Of a stretch of DNA of 14,497 bases, positions 4,373 through 13,995 are shown one piece after another. Under the pieces are notes generated by a model that had not been told where the DNA came from, searched no databases, and saw only the letters and a list, made by a program, of their open reading frames with translations. Source of the DNA: an uncultured Pseudomonadota bacterium (lineage in GTDB: Bacteria; Pseudomonadota; Gammaproteobacteria; Burkholderiales; SG8-39); contig CAIPGJ010000918.1 in the NCBI GenBank assembly GCA_903864555.1, positions 1 to 14,497 on the forward strand, given 5' to 3'. The position numbers were made by a program, and so were the translations under genes. How positions within the stretch are numbered: the first letter of the stretch is position 1; each line of letters opens with the position of its first letter.

Positions 4373-4432
4373 CCCGGTTGGACTGCCTAATGACCTAATA
4401 GTCTAATCAAGTCACTCGGCTATCCAACCGGG
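4373..4432. repeat. 60-base element bounded by 10-base perfect inverted repeats
   Basis: CCCGGTTGGA at 4373-4382 is the exact reverse complement of TCCAACCGGG at 4423-4432. The 40 bases between are AT-rich with short, imperfect internal complementarity (a TGAC/GTCA pair flanks a TAATAG-like core). Reading on the minus strand, the closing arm is followed by CTCTTTTC, so it could act as a loose rho-independent terminator for the histone gene. A tiny remnant of a miniature inverted-repeat element is the other option; no target duplication is evident. Confidence 0.45.
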
Positions 4433-4455
4433 GGATATCCCTTGAAGCTGAATGT

Positions 4456-4486
4456 CTGCGGATCAGCCCTTGCAGGCTGTCCGCAG
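4456..4486. repeat. Bulged hairpin just past the histone H1-like stop codon
   Basis: CTGCGGA (4456-4462) pairs with TCCGCAG (4480-4486), and CAGCC (4464-4468) pairs with GGCTG (4475-4479), with one bulged T and a 6-nt loop. The 12 bp of pairing start 14 nt after the histone stop. No U-tract follows on either strand, so it looks more like an mRNA 3'-end protecting hairpin than an intrinsic terminator. Confidence 0.45.
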
Positions 4487-4499
4487 TCCATTCAAAACC

Positions 4500-4862
4500 C
4501 TAAGGCCTTGAGCCGGTCGGGAAAGGCCACGCCGCAGCAGGGTTCAGGGCGGTACGCGCCCCGGGGGCAGCTGCTGTGGACGGAGCTGAAGACTCCGATA
4601 CCACCGCTTTTGCCGCCGCTACTGCGGGCTTTCTAGCCTTCTTTGCCGGCTTCTTGGTCGCTTTCTTTTTTGCGGGCTTCTTCTTAGCCGGCTTTTTGCC
4701 GGCTTTTTTTGAGGCCGCTTTCTTTTTCGCGGGTTTTTTAGCCGCTTTCTTCTTTTTCGCAGCCTTCTTCTTCGCAGCCTTCTTTTTCGCAGCCTTCTTT
4801 TTCGCAGCCTTCTTCTTGGCTGGTTTCTTAGCGGCCTTCTTTGCTTTCTTCTTCGTTGCCAT
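4500..4862 (-). CDS. Histone H1-like, lysine/alanine-rich DNA-binding protein
   Basis: A very basic 120-residue protein. Residues 1-80 are almost entirely K, A and P in KKAAKK and KKPAKK repeats, like the C-terminal tail of eukaryotic H1 and the bacterial Hc1/BpH1/AlgP-type proteins, which bind and compact DNA without a folded domain. The rest is an Ala-rich linker ending in LNPAAAWPFPTG; I recall this tail as conserved in betaproteobacterial homologues. The start at 4862 is chosen over upstream codons because GGAGGT (4871-4876) lies 8 nt before it. Part of the repeat is a 15-bp tandem duplication at the DNA level (4757-4816). It follows the broken nrdA gene on the same strand, about 60 nt downstream. 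Expected role: nucleoid compaction or modulation of DNA access. Confidence 0.88.
   Translation of the reverse strand: MATKKKAKKAAKKPAKKKAAKKKAAKKKAAKKKAAKKKKAAKKPAKKKAASKKAGKKPAKKKPAKKKATKKPAKKARKPAVAAAKAVVSESSAPSTAAAPGARTALNPAAAWPFPTGSRP
4757..4816. repeat. Four tandem copies of a 15-bp unit inside the histone H1-like gene
   Basis: The plus-strand unit TCGCAGCCTTCTTYT occurs four times head to tail from 4757 to 4816, the copies differing only at one T/C position. Each unit encodes five residues of the K/A tail, so copy-number change would alter tail length without a frameshift. Confidence 0.85.
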
Positions 4863-4924
4863 GGTTACTACCTCCATCAAGAGTTAAAGGACAACATTAG
4901 GAAACCCACCCGTGCGGGCATGGG

Positions 4925-5686
4925 CTATCCGGCCGACAGGGAAAAATCCCTTCCAGCCGAATTTCTCGCCTGCTCCAGCATGGAGCAGGCATGGAAAGGC
5001 CGCGGCCTTTCCCAATTCGGATCGACAGCAAGTCTTTTCAAGCATCGTATGTATCGGGTAGGAACCAGTGATAGCTCTGGAGGGCCTGCGTTGAACAGCG
5101 TGGGAGTGCTACTCATGAAGTCAAAGCTGGACAGGTCTTTGTAAAACTCGATCGCCCGCGCTTCGCGGTCGATCTCGAGGAGGGACTGTCCCATTGGCTT
5201 ACGCACGCCTTCGTCAAGGACCGAGATGGTGAATTCCTTTACTCCAACCCCGGAGGATGCCTTGCGGGTGACAGCCTGCGATGCGCGCGCTTCTGCTCGC
5301 TTCTGGCGGTACAGGACATAGGAACGAGCAACTTCGTGCTCTCCGGAACGCATCAAGGCCAGTTCAACCTGATCCTGAATATCCTCGATATGGAACGTAC
5401 CGCCGCCTGCCTGGCGATGGACCAGAGCGTTCACCACCAAGTCTGTGAGACTAGCGACCAGCTCCCTGATGCGGGCCGAGGCGGCACCCTGCCCGCCCTC
5501 TACAGCGAGGAAAGCCCTGGTCATCGCCACTGATATTTTTGATGGCTCGAATACGACCACGGCGCCATTGCGCCGAATCACCTTGCCATCGGAACTGGAA
5601 GCAGCAACCGGGGCTGTACTACCCTGCGATTCCGCATGTGCGCCCATGATGGCGGAGGCGGTTGCTACTTCTGCAGAAACTTGCAT
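4925..5686 (-). pseudogene. nrdA: Remnant of ribonucleotide reductase large subunit (class Ia NrdA): ATP-cone kept, catalytic domain lost
   Basis: A full NrdA reduces ribonucleotides to deoxyribonucleotides with NrdB and has about 900 or more residues in this lineage. Here an open frame of 253 residues remains. Residues 35-135 are a complete ATP-cone (KVIRRNGAVVVFEPSKI, then HIEDIQDQVELALMRSGEHEVARSYVLYR), the allosteric domain. Residues 151-164 look like the start of a second cone (TISVLDEGVRKP). The frame then jumps to IDREARAIEFY..LSSFDFMSSTPTLFNAG (172-201), which in intact enzymes lies roughly 200 residues later: an in-frame internal deletion joined near 5182-5194. After residue 201 (near 5083) similarity stops where LSSCYL should follow, and the tail reads through palindromic DNA to a stop. 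None of the catalytic cysteines is present and no nrdB follows. The start at 5686 has GAGGAG (5694-5699) at 7 nt. It may still be made as an ATP-cone protein; function unknown. Confidence 0.87.
4957..5020. repeat. Nested palindromes that can fold as a three-way junction, just past the nrdA break
   Basis: A 7-bp outer stem (CCGAATT 4957-4963 with AATTCGG 5014-5020) encloses two hairpins: a perfect 10-bp stem with a 3-nt loop (4968-4977 with 4981-4990, arms GCCTGCTCCA/TGGAGCAGGC) and a perfect 20-bp palindrome (4993-5012, half-site GGAAAGGCCG). Almost every base of the 64-base block is paired. It is read through by the tail of the nrdA remnant on the minus strand. No long U-tract follows on either strand. 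It could be the old 3' transcript end of the RNR operon, a small structured RNA, or a repeat element. Confidence 0.65.
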
Positions 5687-5824
5687 CGGCGGTCTCCTCA
5701 ATTCTGGCATCAGCTGATTTCCGGTCCACTTTTACGCATTACCTGCGGAAGACTGGTTGCCGATCCAGCGCCTGCGCATGTCCACTGTTTGATGCAACGG
5801 TGCTGGAGTACCACTCACTCCAAA

Positions 5825-5871
5825 CCACAATATATAGTAGCTCACACAGGGACTGCAACTAATTCTAGTTG
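5825..5871. promoter_or_regulatory. Pair of NrdR boxes in front of the nrdA remnant
   Basis: Box 1 at 5825-5840 matches the published NrdR consensus (acaCwAtATaTwGtgt) at 13 of 16 positions, with the full central CAATATATAG. Box 2 at 5856-5871 matches at 9 of 16, including the conserved C, A, T and G positions, and sits in an 18-base perfect inverted repeat (GCAACTA/TAGTTGC, 5855-5872). The boxes are 31 bp apart, the three-turn spacing known for NrdR operators. Box 2 covers the predicted -10, as expected for repression. NrdR itself is not in the window. Confidence 0.8.
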
Positions 5872-5890
5872 CGAGGTTTTGAAGTTGCAA
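5862..5890 (-). promoter_or_regulatory. Sigma-70 promoter of the nrdA remnant
   Basis: On the minus strand TTGCAA (5885-5890) and TAGAAT (5862-5867) are separated by exactly 17 bp. The -10 lies inside NrdR box 2, and box 1 lies just downstream of the predicted start near 5855. The leader would be about 170 nt. No other feature was seen in 5687-5824. Confidence 0.62.
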
Positions 5891-5949
5891 GCAATTTCCC
5901 GCCACAGAATGCATTGCAAGTGCCGCCAAGGGCAGCCAAGCAGGTTGGA

Positions 5950-5975
5950 CTGGCGTGAAGGCGCCACTGCGCCAG
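5950..5975. repeat. Hairpin downstream of ampD
   Basis: CTGGCG (5950-5955) pairs with CGCCAG (5970-5975); TGGCG can instead pair with CGCCA at 5962-5966. It starts 11 nt past the ampD stop on the minus strand, but no U-tract follows, so termination there is uncertain. Confidence 0.3.
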
Positions 5976-5986
5976 CCTAGGCACGC

Positions 5987-6523
5987 TCAGCGAAGGAAGG
6001 AACGAAACAGCAACCAGTCGAAGCAGGGACCGGGATCGGTCTTTCGTCCGGGTGCTATGTCCGAATGACCTACCACGTCACTGATGGGATAAGCAGACTG
6101 CAATAGTGTCACCAACTGGGCAAGGCAACGGTACTGGACTCGTTCGTAGGGCAAATCCTCGCTGCCCTCAAGTTCGATGCCAATGGAGAAATCGTTGCAC
6201 CTTGGCCGGCCTGCCCACTGCGATGCACCAGCATGCCATGCACGCTGACAGCAAGGGACGAACTGAATCAGCGCACCGTCTCGACGTACGTAGAAGTGAG
6301 ACGAGACCCGCAACCCAACCAGACCAGCATAGTAAGGGTGTGCACCAGTGTCCAAAGTGTTCGTGAAAAGCTCCGCCACCTGATTGCCGCCGAATTCACC
6401 CGGCGGCAGGCTGATGCAATGTATGACGAGCAGCGATATGACAGTGCCTGAAGGCCTGGCATCACAATTGGGCGAATCCACCCTGCGGGCCTCGTCAACG
6501 CGTCCTTTGGCGTCCAGATTCAT
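5987..6523 (-). CDS. ampD: 1,6-anhydro-N-acetylmuramyl-L-alanine amidase AmpD
   Basis: A zinc amidase that removes peptides from anhydromuropeptides in the cytosol during cell-wall recycling, which also sets the level of beta-lactamase inducer in species with AmpR. 178 residues, close to E. coli AmpD (183). Seen: zinc ligands His35 (LLVIHCISLPPGEFGG), His153 and Asp163 (VVGHSDIAPGRKTDPGP), catalytic Glu117 (FSIGIELEG), and Lys161, in the same spacing as E. coli His34/His154/Asp164/Glu116/Lys162. The open frame extends further upstream into pilR, but the ATG at 6523 is the first that fits the family and lies 16 nt past the pilR stop. The Shine-Dalgarno sequence is poor, so translation probably depends on read-through from pilR. 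It supplies a recycling step downstream of lytic transglycosylases such as the one at 3338-4051. Confidence 0.95.
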   Translation of the reverse strand: MNLDAKGRVDEARRVDSPNCDARPSGTVISLLVIHCISLPPGEFGGNQVAELFTNTLDTGAHPYYAGLVGLRVSSHFYVRRDGALIQFVPCCQRAWHAGASQWAGRPRCNDFSIGIELEGSEDLPYERVQYRCLAQLVTLLQSAYPISDVVGHSDIAPGRKTDPGPCFDWLLFRSFLR

Positions 6524-9897: not shown

Positions 9898-10020
9898 AAT
9901 TGTTGCTATCCGGGAGGGCTGGGCTGACATCAACGCATCACAAGCCGTTCATGTATTCGCAAAGTCATCGGACGGAAGCAGCCCCATATACTATCAGTAC
10001 GGCACATCCCCCACAACCGT

Positions 10021-10044
10021 GAGAAAAGACCCCGACCTGGCGGG
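10021..10044 (-). terminator. Weak candidate terminator of ispB
   Basis: On the minus strand CCCG (10041-10044) pairs with CGGG (10031-10034) over a 6-nt loop, followed by GTCTTTTCTC. It lies about 16 nt past the ispB stop. The stem is short, hence low confidence. The rest of 9898-10059 shows nothing clear apart from space for the tRNA promoter. Confidence 0.35.
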
Positions 10045-10059
10045 AATGACAACACCCCT

Positions 10060-11028
10060 TCAGTAACGTCGGTCGACTGCAAACCTTGCAAGGCTGGTCA
10101 GGCATTTCTTGTAGTCCGAATCAGGCAGCAAGGCGATGGCCGTGATTGCCTGCTCGGCCTCCCGGCGTGCAGCAGCGCAGGCGTATTCAAGTGAACCCGT
10201 TGCCTGGATCGCCGCCAAGACACCCTCGAATCCCTCCCGTCCACCATGCTCGATCGCATTGCGCACGAGGCTTGCATGCTCGGGTGAACCGGTTTGCAGC
10301 ACATGTATCAGCGGCAACGTAGGCTTGCCCTCATTCAGGTCATCACCCAGATTCTTGCCGGTCGCTGCGGCATCTCCAGAGTAGTCCAGCACATCGTCGA
10401 TCAACTGAAAAGCAGTGCCCAGGTGCATTCCGTAGCGAGCCAGTCCACCCTCTATGTCCGTAGGCGCCTTGGCCACTATGCCGCCAATCTGGCCAGCCGC
10501 CTCAAACAGCTTGGCCGTCTTGCGATGGATTATGCGCAGATACCCGGCTTCCCCGATATCGGGATTGCGGGCGTTGAGAAGCTGAAGAACCTCTCCCTCT
10601 GCAATCGCATTAGTGGCGTTGGCCAGCACTTCCATGACCCGCATGTCCCCGACTGAGACCATCATCTGGAAGGCCCGCGAGTACAGAAAATCACCGACCA
10701 GCACGCTGGCGGCGTTGCCGAACTCCGTATTCGCGGTCTTGCGACCTCGCCTGAGATCGGACTCGTCCACCACGTCGTCATGCAGTAATGTGGCGGTGTG
10801 TATGAACTCCACTACTGCCGCAAGATCTATGTGAGAGGCGCCAGCGTAACCCGATGCGCGCGCAGCCAGTATCACCAACGCCGGCCGGAGGCGCTTGCCC
10901 CCCCCGCCGATAATGTGATCCGCAACCAGCCCCACCAAAGCGACATCGGAGGAAAGCCGCGCCCGGATCTGCCGATCCACGGCCTCCATGTCGGCAGACA
11001 CCACTGAACGAATGAAATCAGGCTGCAA
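10060..11028 (-). CDS. ispB: Octaprenyl (all-trans polyprenyl) diphosphate synthase
   Basis: Builds the long isoprenoid side chain of ubiquinone by adding isopentenyl diphosphate units to farnesyl diphosphate in the cytosol. Seen: GGGGKRLRP near the N-terminus (IPP binding), the first aspartate-rich motif LLHDDVVDESDLRRG, and the second FQLIDDVLDYSGD. The start is probably the TTG at 11028: it has GGAAG 9 nt upstream, gives 322 residues (E. coli IspB has 323) and a leader of about 30 nt from the predicted promoter. A GTG at 11049 would add 7 residues but has no Shine-Dalgarno sequence and only about 10 nt of leader. Chain length (8 or otherwise) cannot be fixed from sequence. It is divergent from rplU, as in many proteobacteria. 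Confidence 0.93.
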   Translation of the reverse strand: MQPDFIRSVVSADMEAVDRQIRARLSSDVALVGLVADHIIGGGGKRLRPALVILAARASGYAGASHIDLAAVVEFIHTATLLHDDVVDESDLRRGRKTANTEFGNAASVLVGDFLYSRAFQMMVSVGDMRVMEVLANATNAIAEGEVLQLLNARNPDIGEAGYLRIIHRKTAKLFEAAGQIGGIVAKAPTDIEGGLARYGMHLGTAFQLIDDVLDYSGDAAATGKNLGDDLNEGKPTLPLIHVLQTGSPEHASLVRNAIEHGGREGFEGVLAAIQATGSLEYACAAARREAEQAITAIALLPDSDYKKCLTSLARFAVDRRY

Positions 11029-11066
11029 GATCCAGATCTTCCGATGCACAAAACATTATTTAATTC

Positions 11067-11095
11067 ATAGTATTATGACGTTGACCGCGTGCCAA
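11067..11095 (-). promoter_or_regulatory. Sigma-70 promoter of ispB
   Basis: On the minus strand TTGGCA (11090-11095) and TACTAT (11067-11072) are separated by 17 bp, with transcription starting near 11060. The -35 is a 5/6 match and the -10 a 4/6 match. This placement favours the TTG start at 11028. Confidence 0.5.
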
Positions 11096-11150
11096 GCTAC
11101 AGTTTCAGCGAGCACTCCAGTCACACGGTTTCTAGAATACCATGGGAGGC

Positions 11151-11180
11151 TTGTTCGTTTGGTCCTGGCTGACGTATAAT
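11151..11180 (+). promoter_or_regulatory. Sigma-70 promoter of the rplU-rpmA operon
   Basis: A perfect TATAAT at 11175-11180 with TTGTTC at 11151-11156, spacing 18 bp. Transcription would start near 11187, giving a leader of about 25 nt, too short for an autoregulatory leader structure. Confidence 0.65.
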
Positions 11181-11211
11181 TGTTGGTTCTCAAAGCAATT
11201 CGGAGCAGGTC

Positions 11212-11523
11212 ATGTACGCTGTAATCAAGACCGGCGGAAAGCAATACCGCGTCAGCGAAGGCGAAAAACTAAAAGTCGAAAGTCTTGTTGCCGACGTTGG
11301 CAGCGAACTGGTTCTGGACAAGGTTCTCGCTTGTGGGGAAGGTGAGTCCGTGAAGATCGGAACCCCTCTGGTTCAAGGCGCCCAGGTGAAAGCCCGGGTC
11401 GTGGCGCATGGCCTCGGCGTCAAAGTCAAGATTTTCAAGCTTCGCCGCAGAAAGCACTATCAGAAACATCAGGGGCACAGGCAGGCTTACACCGAGATTG
11501 AGATCACCGGCATTTCGGCCTGA
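11212..11523 (+). CDS. rplU: 50S ribosomal protein L21
   Basis: 103 residues, the standard L21 length. Seen: N-terminus [23 protein letters not shown], and the basic RNA-binding C-terminal part [26 protein letters not shown]. It binds 23S rRNA in the large subunit. The ATG at 11212 follows GGAGCAGG. First gene of the rplU-rpmA transcript; rpmA starts 18 nt after its stop. Confidence 0.98.
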
Positions 11524-11541
11524 TCTTCCAGGAGAAAATTC

Positions 11542-13995
<2,454 letters not shown>

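What the first reader, a model, noticed from the sequence alone, without database searches (positions are those of the whole stretch)
4925..5686. nrdA reduced to its allosteric ATP-cone with an in-frame deletion and loss of the catalytic barrel
A class Ia nrdA gene sits in a natural-looking place (its own NrdR-controlled promoter, next to ampD) but keeps only an ATP-cone and a short piece ending at TPTLFNAG. The internal join near 5182-5194 preserves the frame, and the second break is near 5083. No catalytic cysteine and no nrdB remain in the window. Either this is a recent loss, with another RNR elsewhere in the genome, or the open frame is kept as a free ATP-cone protein that senses ATP/dATP, as NrdR does with its own cone. 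The intact start, RBS and frame across the deletion make the second idea worth testing.
Basis: partly seen in the sequence, partly recalled or inferred. Interest (0 to 1): 0.8.

Follow-up and report, generated by a model that had tools for sequence, protein, structure and literature searches.

The report
Dying nrdA gene, promoter still kept
This is the recently cut-down stump of a DNA-building-block enzyme gene in what looks like a betaproteobacterium; relatives that lost the enzyme kept its control switch, which probably now serves the histone-like gene next door.

Summary
The 253-codon ORF (5686-4925, minus strand) is NrdA's ATP-cone joined in frame to about 37 residues ending TPTLFNAG, then to the 3' end of a DUF2442 gene. 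In intact relatives the order is ampD-nrdA-nrdB-DUF2442-histone H1-like. Two deletions removed the rest of nrdA and all of nrdB. P0001, on another contig, shares both joins, so a misassembly is unlikely.

In seven sister genomes lacking nrdAB the same interval holds smaller remnants; six of the seven carry class II NrdJ. None keeps an intact cone; the best (G043) is badly eroded. The window's cone still evolves at a normal rate, so its truncation looks recent. A kept free sensor is not excluded, but relatives give it no support.

The unexpected part is the promoter. All eight intervals keep a canonical tandem NrdR-box promoter: 29/29 box bases identical in seven, 26/29 in the eighth, while linker and flanks mostly drifted. 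The histone H1-like gene follows in the same direction, with no further promoter found by a simple scan. Most likely nrdAB was lost from an NrdR-controlled operon and the promoter is kept for the histone gene. Expression is untested.

The parts
4925..5686 (-). Truncated nrdA ORF, 253 codons, ending at the position of the DUF2442 stop codon of relative G042
5294..5584 (-). ATP-cone domain (PF03477), unbroken in sequence
   Evidence: E 1.3e-16; 4 of 69 near-invariant sites changed
5194..5200 (-). Junction 1: in-frame loss of about 165 NrdA residues (about 159-323 of G042 NrdA)
5084..5194 (-). Second kept piece of NrdA (MGQSLLEIDREARAIEFY...TPTLFNAG)
5083..5084 (-). Junction 2: loss of the rest of nrdA, all of nrdB and the 5' part of DUF2442
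4925..5083 (-). Tail of the ORF, most likely from the DUF2442 3' end / pre-histone region, in the DUF2442 frame
   Evidence: alignment and frames, read by eye; DUF2442 in relative G042
5862..5890 (-). Sigma-70-type promoter: TTGCAA, 17 nt, TAGAAT; the -10 lies in NrdR box 1
   Evidence: the only promoter-like hit in 4400-6000 (shuffle mean 0.6)
5856..5869 (-). NrdR box 1 core (ACTAGAATTAGTTG)
5825..5839 (-). NrdR box 2 core (TACTATATATTGTGG), after a 16-nt variable linker
5684..5699 (-). Ribosome-binding-like GAGGAG and ATG start of nrdA
4500..4862 (-). Histone H1-like gene, the next gene downstream and the likely remaining client of the promoter
   Evidence: NF038053, 66.3 bits against a cut-off of 80; PF07382, 36.8 against 40
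5987..6505 (-). ampD, upstream neighbour
   Evidence: PF01510; synteny

Best explanation
The window shows a class Ia nrdAB operon being dismantled. Shown: in intact relatives the order is ampD, NrdR-box promoter, nrdA, nrdB, DUF2442, histone H1-like gene; in the window two deletions left an in-frame chimera of the NrdA ATP-cone, a short all-alpha-domain piece and a DUF2442-like tail. Inferred: the cell makes dNTPs with class II NrdJ, as six of seven sisters can, so nrdAB became dispensable, and the truncation is recent. Shown: sister lineages that lost nrdAB keep the promoter core almost unchanged while most of the nrdAB body is gone. Inferred: the promoter is kept because it transcribes the histone H1-like gene through the shrinking remnant, leaving a histone-like protein under the (d)ATP-sensing repressor NrdR. 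On this reading the cone ORF is passing leader sequence, not a new sensor.
For: Synteny with intact operons. Seven sister intervals with eroded remnants: G043, G051, G038, G050, G048, G052, G053. No NrdB in 6 of these 7 and a remnant in G048; NrdJ in 6 of 7, not found in G051, all six over the TIGR02504 cut-off; NrdR in 6 of 7, not found in G052. Promoter boxes 29/29 identical in 7 of 8 loci and 26/29 in G048; linker 3-15 of 16, flanks 4-22 of 40 over the 28 pairs. Published NrdR-box expression met in 8 of 8 at the canonical spacing. In the two sister pairs where the loss is most simply shared, the 35-base promoter core is 35/35 against fourfold sites at 0.52 (G050/G051) and 0.59 (G052/G053). 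Losses at four places on the tree. No sigma-70-type match between promoter and histone gene in 7 of 8 loci; the one in G052 lies inside the box region.
Against: No transcript data. The histone gene could have a promoter that my scan misses: the scan misses even the retained promoter in 5 of 8 loci. Terminator-like hairpins lie before the histone gene in G048, G050 and G038, and a similar sequence lies there in the intact relatives G002 and G003, so read-through may not hold everywhere. If each genome lost nrdAB recently and on its own, promoter conservation would date from before the loss. In G050/G051 the linker is conserved too (15 of 16), so box-specific constraint is not separable there. 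The window's NrdJ and NrdR were not seen.
Confidence: 0.6

Rival explanations
1. The truncated ORF is kept as a free ATP-cone protein that senses ATP/dATP, perhaps binding other partners.
For: Cone unbroken; start, ribosome-binding-like site and both joins in frame. Terminal-branch rate of the cone relative to flanking genes is 0.79, rank 14 of 23 taxa. 4 of 69 near-invariant sites changed, against 0-4 (mean 1.0) in 21 intact cones. A second allele, P0001, is also open over 253 codons.
Against: 7 of 7 sister loci have lost, cut or wrecked the cone; the best remnant (G043) has 22 of 53 near-invariant sites changed and a rate ratio of 16. Among the 120 listed of 4295 homologs only P0001 has this junction and tail; 114 of 120 align without a large internal gap to intact NrdA. 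The tail looks like DUF2442 debris. The window's 4 changed sites equal the highest count among intact cones. A recent truncation explains the same constraint.
Confidence: 0.15
2. Simple gene decay throughout: the promoter is conserved only because every loss is recent, and nothing depends on it now.
For: Losses at four places on the tree, with different remnants. The window's cone is fresh. Intact relatives in the same part of the tree (G001, G017, G042, G098) have the same 29 box bases, so selection before the loss can explain much.
Against: In G052/G053 and G050/G051 the promoter core is 35/35 while fourfold sites and remnants have diverged widely. Seven assemblies lacking nrdAB all keep it.
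Confidence: 0.2
3. The remnant is kept as a translated leader ORF: translation from the old nrdA start through the spacer prevents Rho-dependent polarity on the downstream histone gene.
For: A start codon with a purine-rich sequence before it is present in 8 of 8; ORFs from it run 54-253 codons, longer than shuffle means in 8 of 8 (p 0.0005-0.16; 4 of 8 below 0.05). In G050/G051 the start region is nearly identical beside diverged sequence.
Against: Remnants of coding DNA are biased towards open frames, so the shuffle null is too easy. I chose the start codons by eye, least surely in G052 and G053. G038 keeps only 54 codons, and 3 of the 8 cover less than two thirds of the spacer.
Confidence: 0.2
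4. Assembly artefact: a chimeric or collapsed contig.
For: No whole genome is held for the window and no reads were seen.
Against: P0001, on another contig with 4 amino-acid differences, has the same junctions. All markers from proB to maeB occur in the same order in L004, L011, L017 and L024.
Confidence: 0.03

Closest known systems
Class Ia ribonucleotide reductase large subunit NrdA (NCBIfam PRK07207 type)
   Same: Start, NrdR-type promoter, ATP-cone and genomic position
   Different: Lacks about 165 residues after the cone, the whole catalytic barrel and nrdB; 212.9 bits against a cut-off of 965
NrdR repressor (Zn-ribbon plus ATP-cone)
   Same: Small protein with an ATP-cone; NrdR-type boxes stand in front of this ORF
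   Different: No Zn-ribbon; the cone is the NrdA kind. NrdR itself is a separate gene in sister genomes
NrdR control of a gene outside the RNRs: topA in Pseudomonas aeruginosa (PMC4409342, passages read)
   Same: NrdR acting on a gene of DNA topology/packing
   Different: topA has a single box and is reported as activated; here a full tandem operator, inherited from a lost RNR operon, stands before a histone-like gene
Histone H1-like DNA-binding proteins (NF038053; PF07382 HC2)
   Same: Lysine/alanine repeats
   Different: Scores are below the curated cut-offs (66.3 against 80; 36.8 against 40). My searches showed no paper linking such a gene to nrdB (0 papers) or to NrdR (20 of 36 papers listed, titles and abstract starts seen)

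Membership tests
Class Ia NrdA | N-terminal ATP-cone | tested here: met
   PF03477, E 1.3e-16
Class Ia NrdA | Catalytic barrel (PF02867) with active-site cysteines | tested here: not met
   Residues 361-953 of the relative's NrdA absent; no PF02867 hit at E up to 1
Class Ia NrdA | Partner NrdB | tested here: not met
   None among the window's ORFs; the window's genome is not held. No NrdB in 6 of 7 sisters and a remnant in one
Conserved free ATP-cone sensor | Same architecture kept across lineages | tested here: not met
   0 of 7 sister loci keep an intact cone; one near-identical allele only among 120 listed homologs
Conserved free ATP-cone sensor | Cone under purifying selection | tested here: inconclusive
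   Normal rate on the window branch, but a recent truncation gives the same
Conserved free ATP-cone sensor | Binds ATP/dATP | not testable with these tools
   Needs biochemistry
NrdR-controlled promoter | Two boxes matching the published expression, 14-17 bp apart | tested here: met
   Expression of PMC12051234 met in 8 of 8 intervals, core spacer 21 (box distance 15); G053 has one further match inside the histone repeats
NrdR-controlled promoter | Boxes overlap the core promoter | tested here: met
   The -10 lies in box 1
NrdR-controlled promoter | NrdR encoded in the genome | tested here: inconclusive
   Window genome not held; found in 6 of 7 sisters
NrdR-controlled promoter | NrdR binds and represses | not testable with these tools
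   Needs EMSA or a reporter
Decaying pseudogene | Loss of domains needed for function | tested here: met
Decaying pseudogene | Relaxed constraint | tested here: not met
   Window ratio 0.79, mid-range; clearly relaxed only in G043

The most novel reading that the evidence does not exclude
Repeated loss of nrdAB has left an orphan NrdR operon: NrdR, the (d)ATP-sensing repressor, now controls a histone H1-like nucleoid protein through a tandem operator inherited from the lost enzyme genes. This would couple dNTP level directly to chromosome packing in bacteria whose remaining RNR is B12-dependent NrdJ, and where in most genomes checked no comparable site was found in front of nrdJ.
Probability: 0.4. 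Interest if true: 0.65.

Novelty: new variant of a known kind. Interest (0 to 1): 0.45.

Why it matters
Replacement of one ribonucleotide reductase class by another is usually seen only as presence or absence. Here the intermediate stages stand side by side in one family: intact operon, cone stump, traces, bare promoter. The survival of the operator without its enzyme suggests that NrdR has a client other than an RNR, a histone-like protein. That makes it testable whether bacteria tie DNA packing to dNTP supply.

Tried and rejected
Assembly artefact: set aside because P0001 carries the same junctions. Search of the window's own genome for other RNRs: not possible, no genome is held. Known RNAs at the locus: Rfam shows only a tRNA in the window and one tRNA in each of 5 of 7 loci scanned. 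NrdR boxes before nrdJ (400 bases before to 300 inside the frame): the published expression matched in G048 and, less convincingly, twice in G050, and in none of the other 6 of 8 genomes; my first looks used a wrong frame for G048, corrected. Boxes within 450 bases before nrdR: 0 of 11. dN/dS between alleles: not possible, P0001 came as protein only. A general nrdB-histone linkage in Betaproteobacteria: not so, a lysine-rich motif lies within 3.5 kb of nrdB in 17 of 44 first-scan loci with room to tell. Relaxed constraint of the window's cone: not found; there G044 and G001 have inflated ratios (9.3 and 6.2), and G044 holds two nrdA copies, which may explain it. Literature: ATP-cone with pseudogene (0 papers), phrases for lost or truncated nrdA or free cones (0 papers), nrdAB/nrdJ/pseudogene (20 of 25 listed, listing only), NrdR regulon (17 listed), histone H1-like in Bordetella (listing only).

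Which genomes were counted as losses. Of 98 family genomes, 14 have no match to the ORF, and G043 and G051 have only weak ones. G015, G083 and G095 still have nrdB matches, so a gap is likely. Intervals of G050 and G052 were located through the promoter pattern itself, the other five by synteny. To see whether this favoured promoter-bearing loci, the nine remaining genomes were searched with AmpD: six gave no match, G056 and G015 gave weak paralog-like matches, and in G071 the contig ends just after ampD. So no assembled ampD-histone interval without the promoter was met, but nine genomes say nothing. The box pattern was drawn from these loci, so their zero mismatches are partly by construction; 14 intact relatives have 0-9 mismatches to it.

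Full report
What is there. The ORF at 5686-4925 (minus strand) starts with an ordinary nrdA start region and reads through an ATP-cone (Pfam E 1.3e-16) into a short all-alpha-domain piece (E 1.7e-7), then a tail with no Pfam match. Against the 953-residue NrdA of relative G042 it keeps residues 1 to about 158 and about 324-360. The first junction is at about 5194-5200 and the second at 5083/5084. The tail aligns with the region just before the histone gene in relatives, where the intact G042 has a DUF2442 gene (Pfam E 8.2e-9). The window's ORF stops at the position where that gene stops (read by eye).

Is it real? The protein database holds P0001, 253 aa, from another (905-base) contig, 98% identical, with the same two joins and tail and four amino-acid differences; none of the other 119 listed homologs has them. 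That makes a misassembly unlikely. Of the 40 loci printed (80 compared, many too short), L004, L011, L017 and L024 hold all markers from proB to maeB in the window's order. In L004, nrdA, nrdB and the histone H1-like gene follow ampD.

Other reductases. The window's genome is not held, so relatives had to stand in. In 14 genomes behind first-scan loci, 12 have a class II NrdJ over its cut-off. In the family of G001, 84 of 98 genomes match the ORF and 93 of 98 have a PF02867 reductase. The five genomes scoring highest on flanking DNA (G043, G039, G038, G051, G052) have no match to the ORF or, in G043 and G051, only a weak one. On the tree the window's own clade is G043, G038 and G039, and the next neighbours G042 and G040 have nrdA. 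In the seven sisters whose ampD-histone interval is assembled (G038, G043, G048, G050, G051, G052, G053), NrdB is not found in 6 and is a remnant in G048. NrdJ is present in 6 and not found in G051, and all six pass TIGR02504. NrdR is present in 6 and not found in G052. These are draft genomes, so absences may be gaps.

A series of stages. G043 keeps an eroded cone; G051 keeps about the first 61 codons; G038, G050, G052 and G053 keep start-region traces and, by eye, DUF2442 debris; G048 has a start region fused to the nrdB end. A tree of 11 flanking proteins (34 taxa, 19-100% of columns filled per taxon) puts the losses at four places: the window with G043/G038/G039 (support 99), G050/G051 (100), G052/G053 (100), and G048 beside G003 (95). 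G039's interval is cut by a contig end, so its status is not counted.

Is the cone kept? The window's cone differs from the family at 4 of 69 near-invariant sites; 21 intact cones differ at 0-4 (mean 1.0), P0001 at 3, and G043's remnant at 22 of 53. With the tree fixed, the window's cone branch is 0.79 of its flank branch, rank 14 of 23, and G043's is 16. So the window's cone has evolved at a normal rate. A recent truncation and a kept function both fit. Because no sister keeps an intact cone, the recent truncation is the simpler reading.

The promoter. The window has one sigma-70-type match in 4400-6000, TTGCAA-17-TAGAAT, whose -10 lies in the first of two NrdR boxes. A published NrdR-box expression (PMC12051234, section 4.6 read; other passages) matches once in the window over both strands, and at the corresponding place in all 8 intervals with core spacer 21, a box distance of 15 bp; G053 has one more match inside the histone repeats. 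In seven loci all 29 box bases are identical; G048 has 26. Over the 28 pairs the linker between the boxes is identical at 3-15 of 16 positions, and flanks of 40 at 4-22. Over 98 family genomes the pair, with up to 3 mismatches, occurs in 37, with no hit for the reversed control. Two of the seven sister intervals (G050, G052) were located through this pattern; a search with AmpD of the nine other nrdA-lacking genomes found no assembled interval lacking it. Fourteen intact relatives have 0-9 mismatches to the pattern. In the two sister pairs with most simply shared losses, the promoter core (-35 plus boxes) is 35/35 while fourfold sites of six flanking genes are at 404/776 (G050/G051) and 462/782 (G052/G053) (Fisher p 2.4e-10 and 1.7e-8, uncorrected, sites treated as independent, one member of each pair found by the pattern). 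That indicates selection after the loss if the losses are shared, which is inferred by parsimony.

What the promoter may serve. The next gene in the same direction is histone H1-like (below curated cut-offs). My scan finds no sigma-70-type match between the promoter and this gene in 7 of 8 intervals, and the one in G052 lies inside the boxes. Its sensitivity is limited: it recovers the retained promoter itself only in the window, G043 and G048, since the -35 is TTGCAT in the other five. Terminator-like hairpins precede the histone gene in G038, G050 and G048, and were not found in the other five. No comparable site was seen before nrdJ except in G048 and weakly in G050, of 8 genomes checked, nor before nrdR (0 of 11). 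So in most of these genomes the orphan promoter is the only clear NrdR site I found; no genome-wide scan with a loose pattern was done. NrdR control outside the RNRs has a precedent, topA of Pseudomonas aeruginosa (PMC4409342, passages read). Searches for NrdR with histone H1 (20 of 36 papers listed) and for nrdB with histone H1-like and operon (0 papers) showed no paper making this link; I saw listings, and passages of one listed paper that did not bear on it (PMC4989314).

Leader frame. From the old nrdA start the frame stays open for 54-253 codons, longer than the shuffle mean in 8 of 8, with p below 0.05 in 4 of 8. Coding remnants favour open frames, and I chose the starts by eye, so this is weak evidence for a translated leader.

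Verdict. It is best read as one recent stage of repeated nrdAB loss in a family in which most genomes examined carry NrdJ. The cone-sensor idea is not excluded for this species, but finds no support in its relatives. The more telling fact is the NrdR promoter that survives without its enzyme, probably for the histone-like gene.

Noticed in passing
L004, L110, L113 between nrdB and the histone gene: A DUF2442 gene (open in G042 and G028, seemingly broken in G001) sits between nrdB and the histone H1-like gene; what looks like its debris remains in several loci without nrdAB.
   Followed up: partly
L026 (genome G003), 10001-12855: nrdA is split into two frames (594 and 336 codons): either a frameshift error or an early stage of loss in the sister of G048.
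   Followed up: no
P0003, P0022, P0035, P0096, P0098: Five other NrdA fragments of the 120 listed have internal gaps of 93-125 residues between the cone and the barrel, in the same stretch as the window's first junction; their genomic context was not seen.
   Followed up: partly
window 4500-4862 and sister loci: The histone H1-like protein ends in a nearly invariant ALNPAAAWPFPTGSRP although its lysine-rich part varies in length.
   Followed up: no
genome G044, contigs C36 and C388: Two nrdA copies with frames of 967 and 961 codons, each with its own identical NrdR-box pair.
   Followed up: no
L169 (genome G048), upstream of nrdJ: A tandem NrdR-box pair precedes nrdJ, unlike in most of the genomes checked.
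   Followed up: partly
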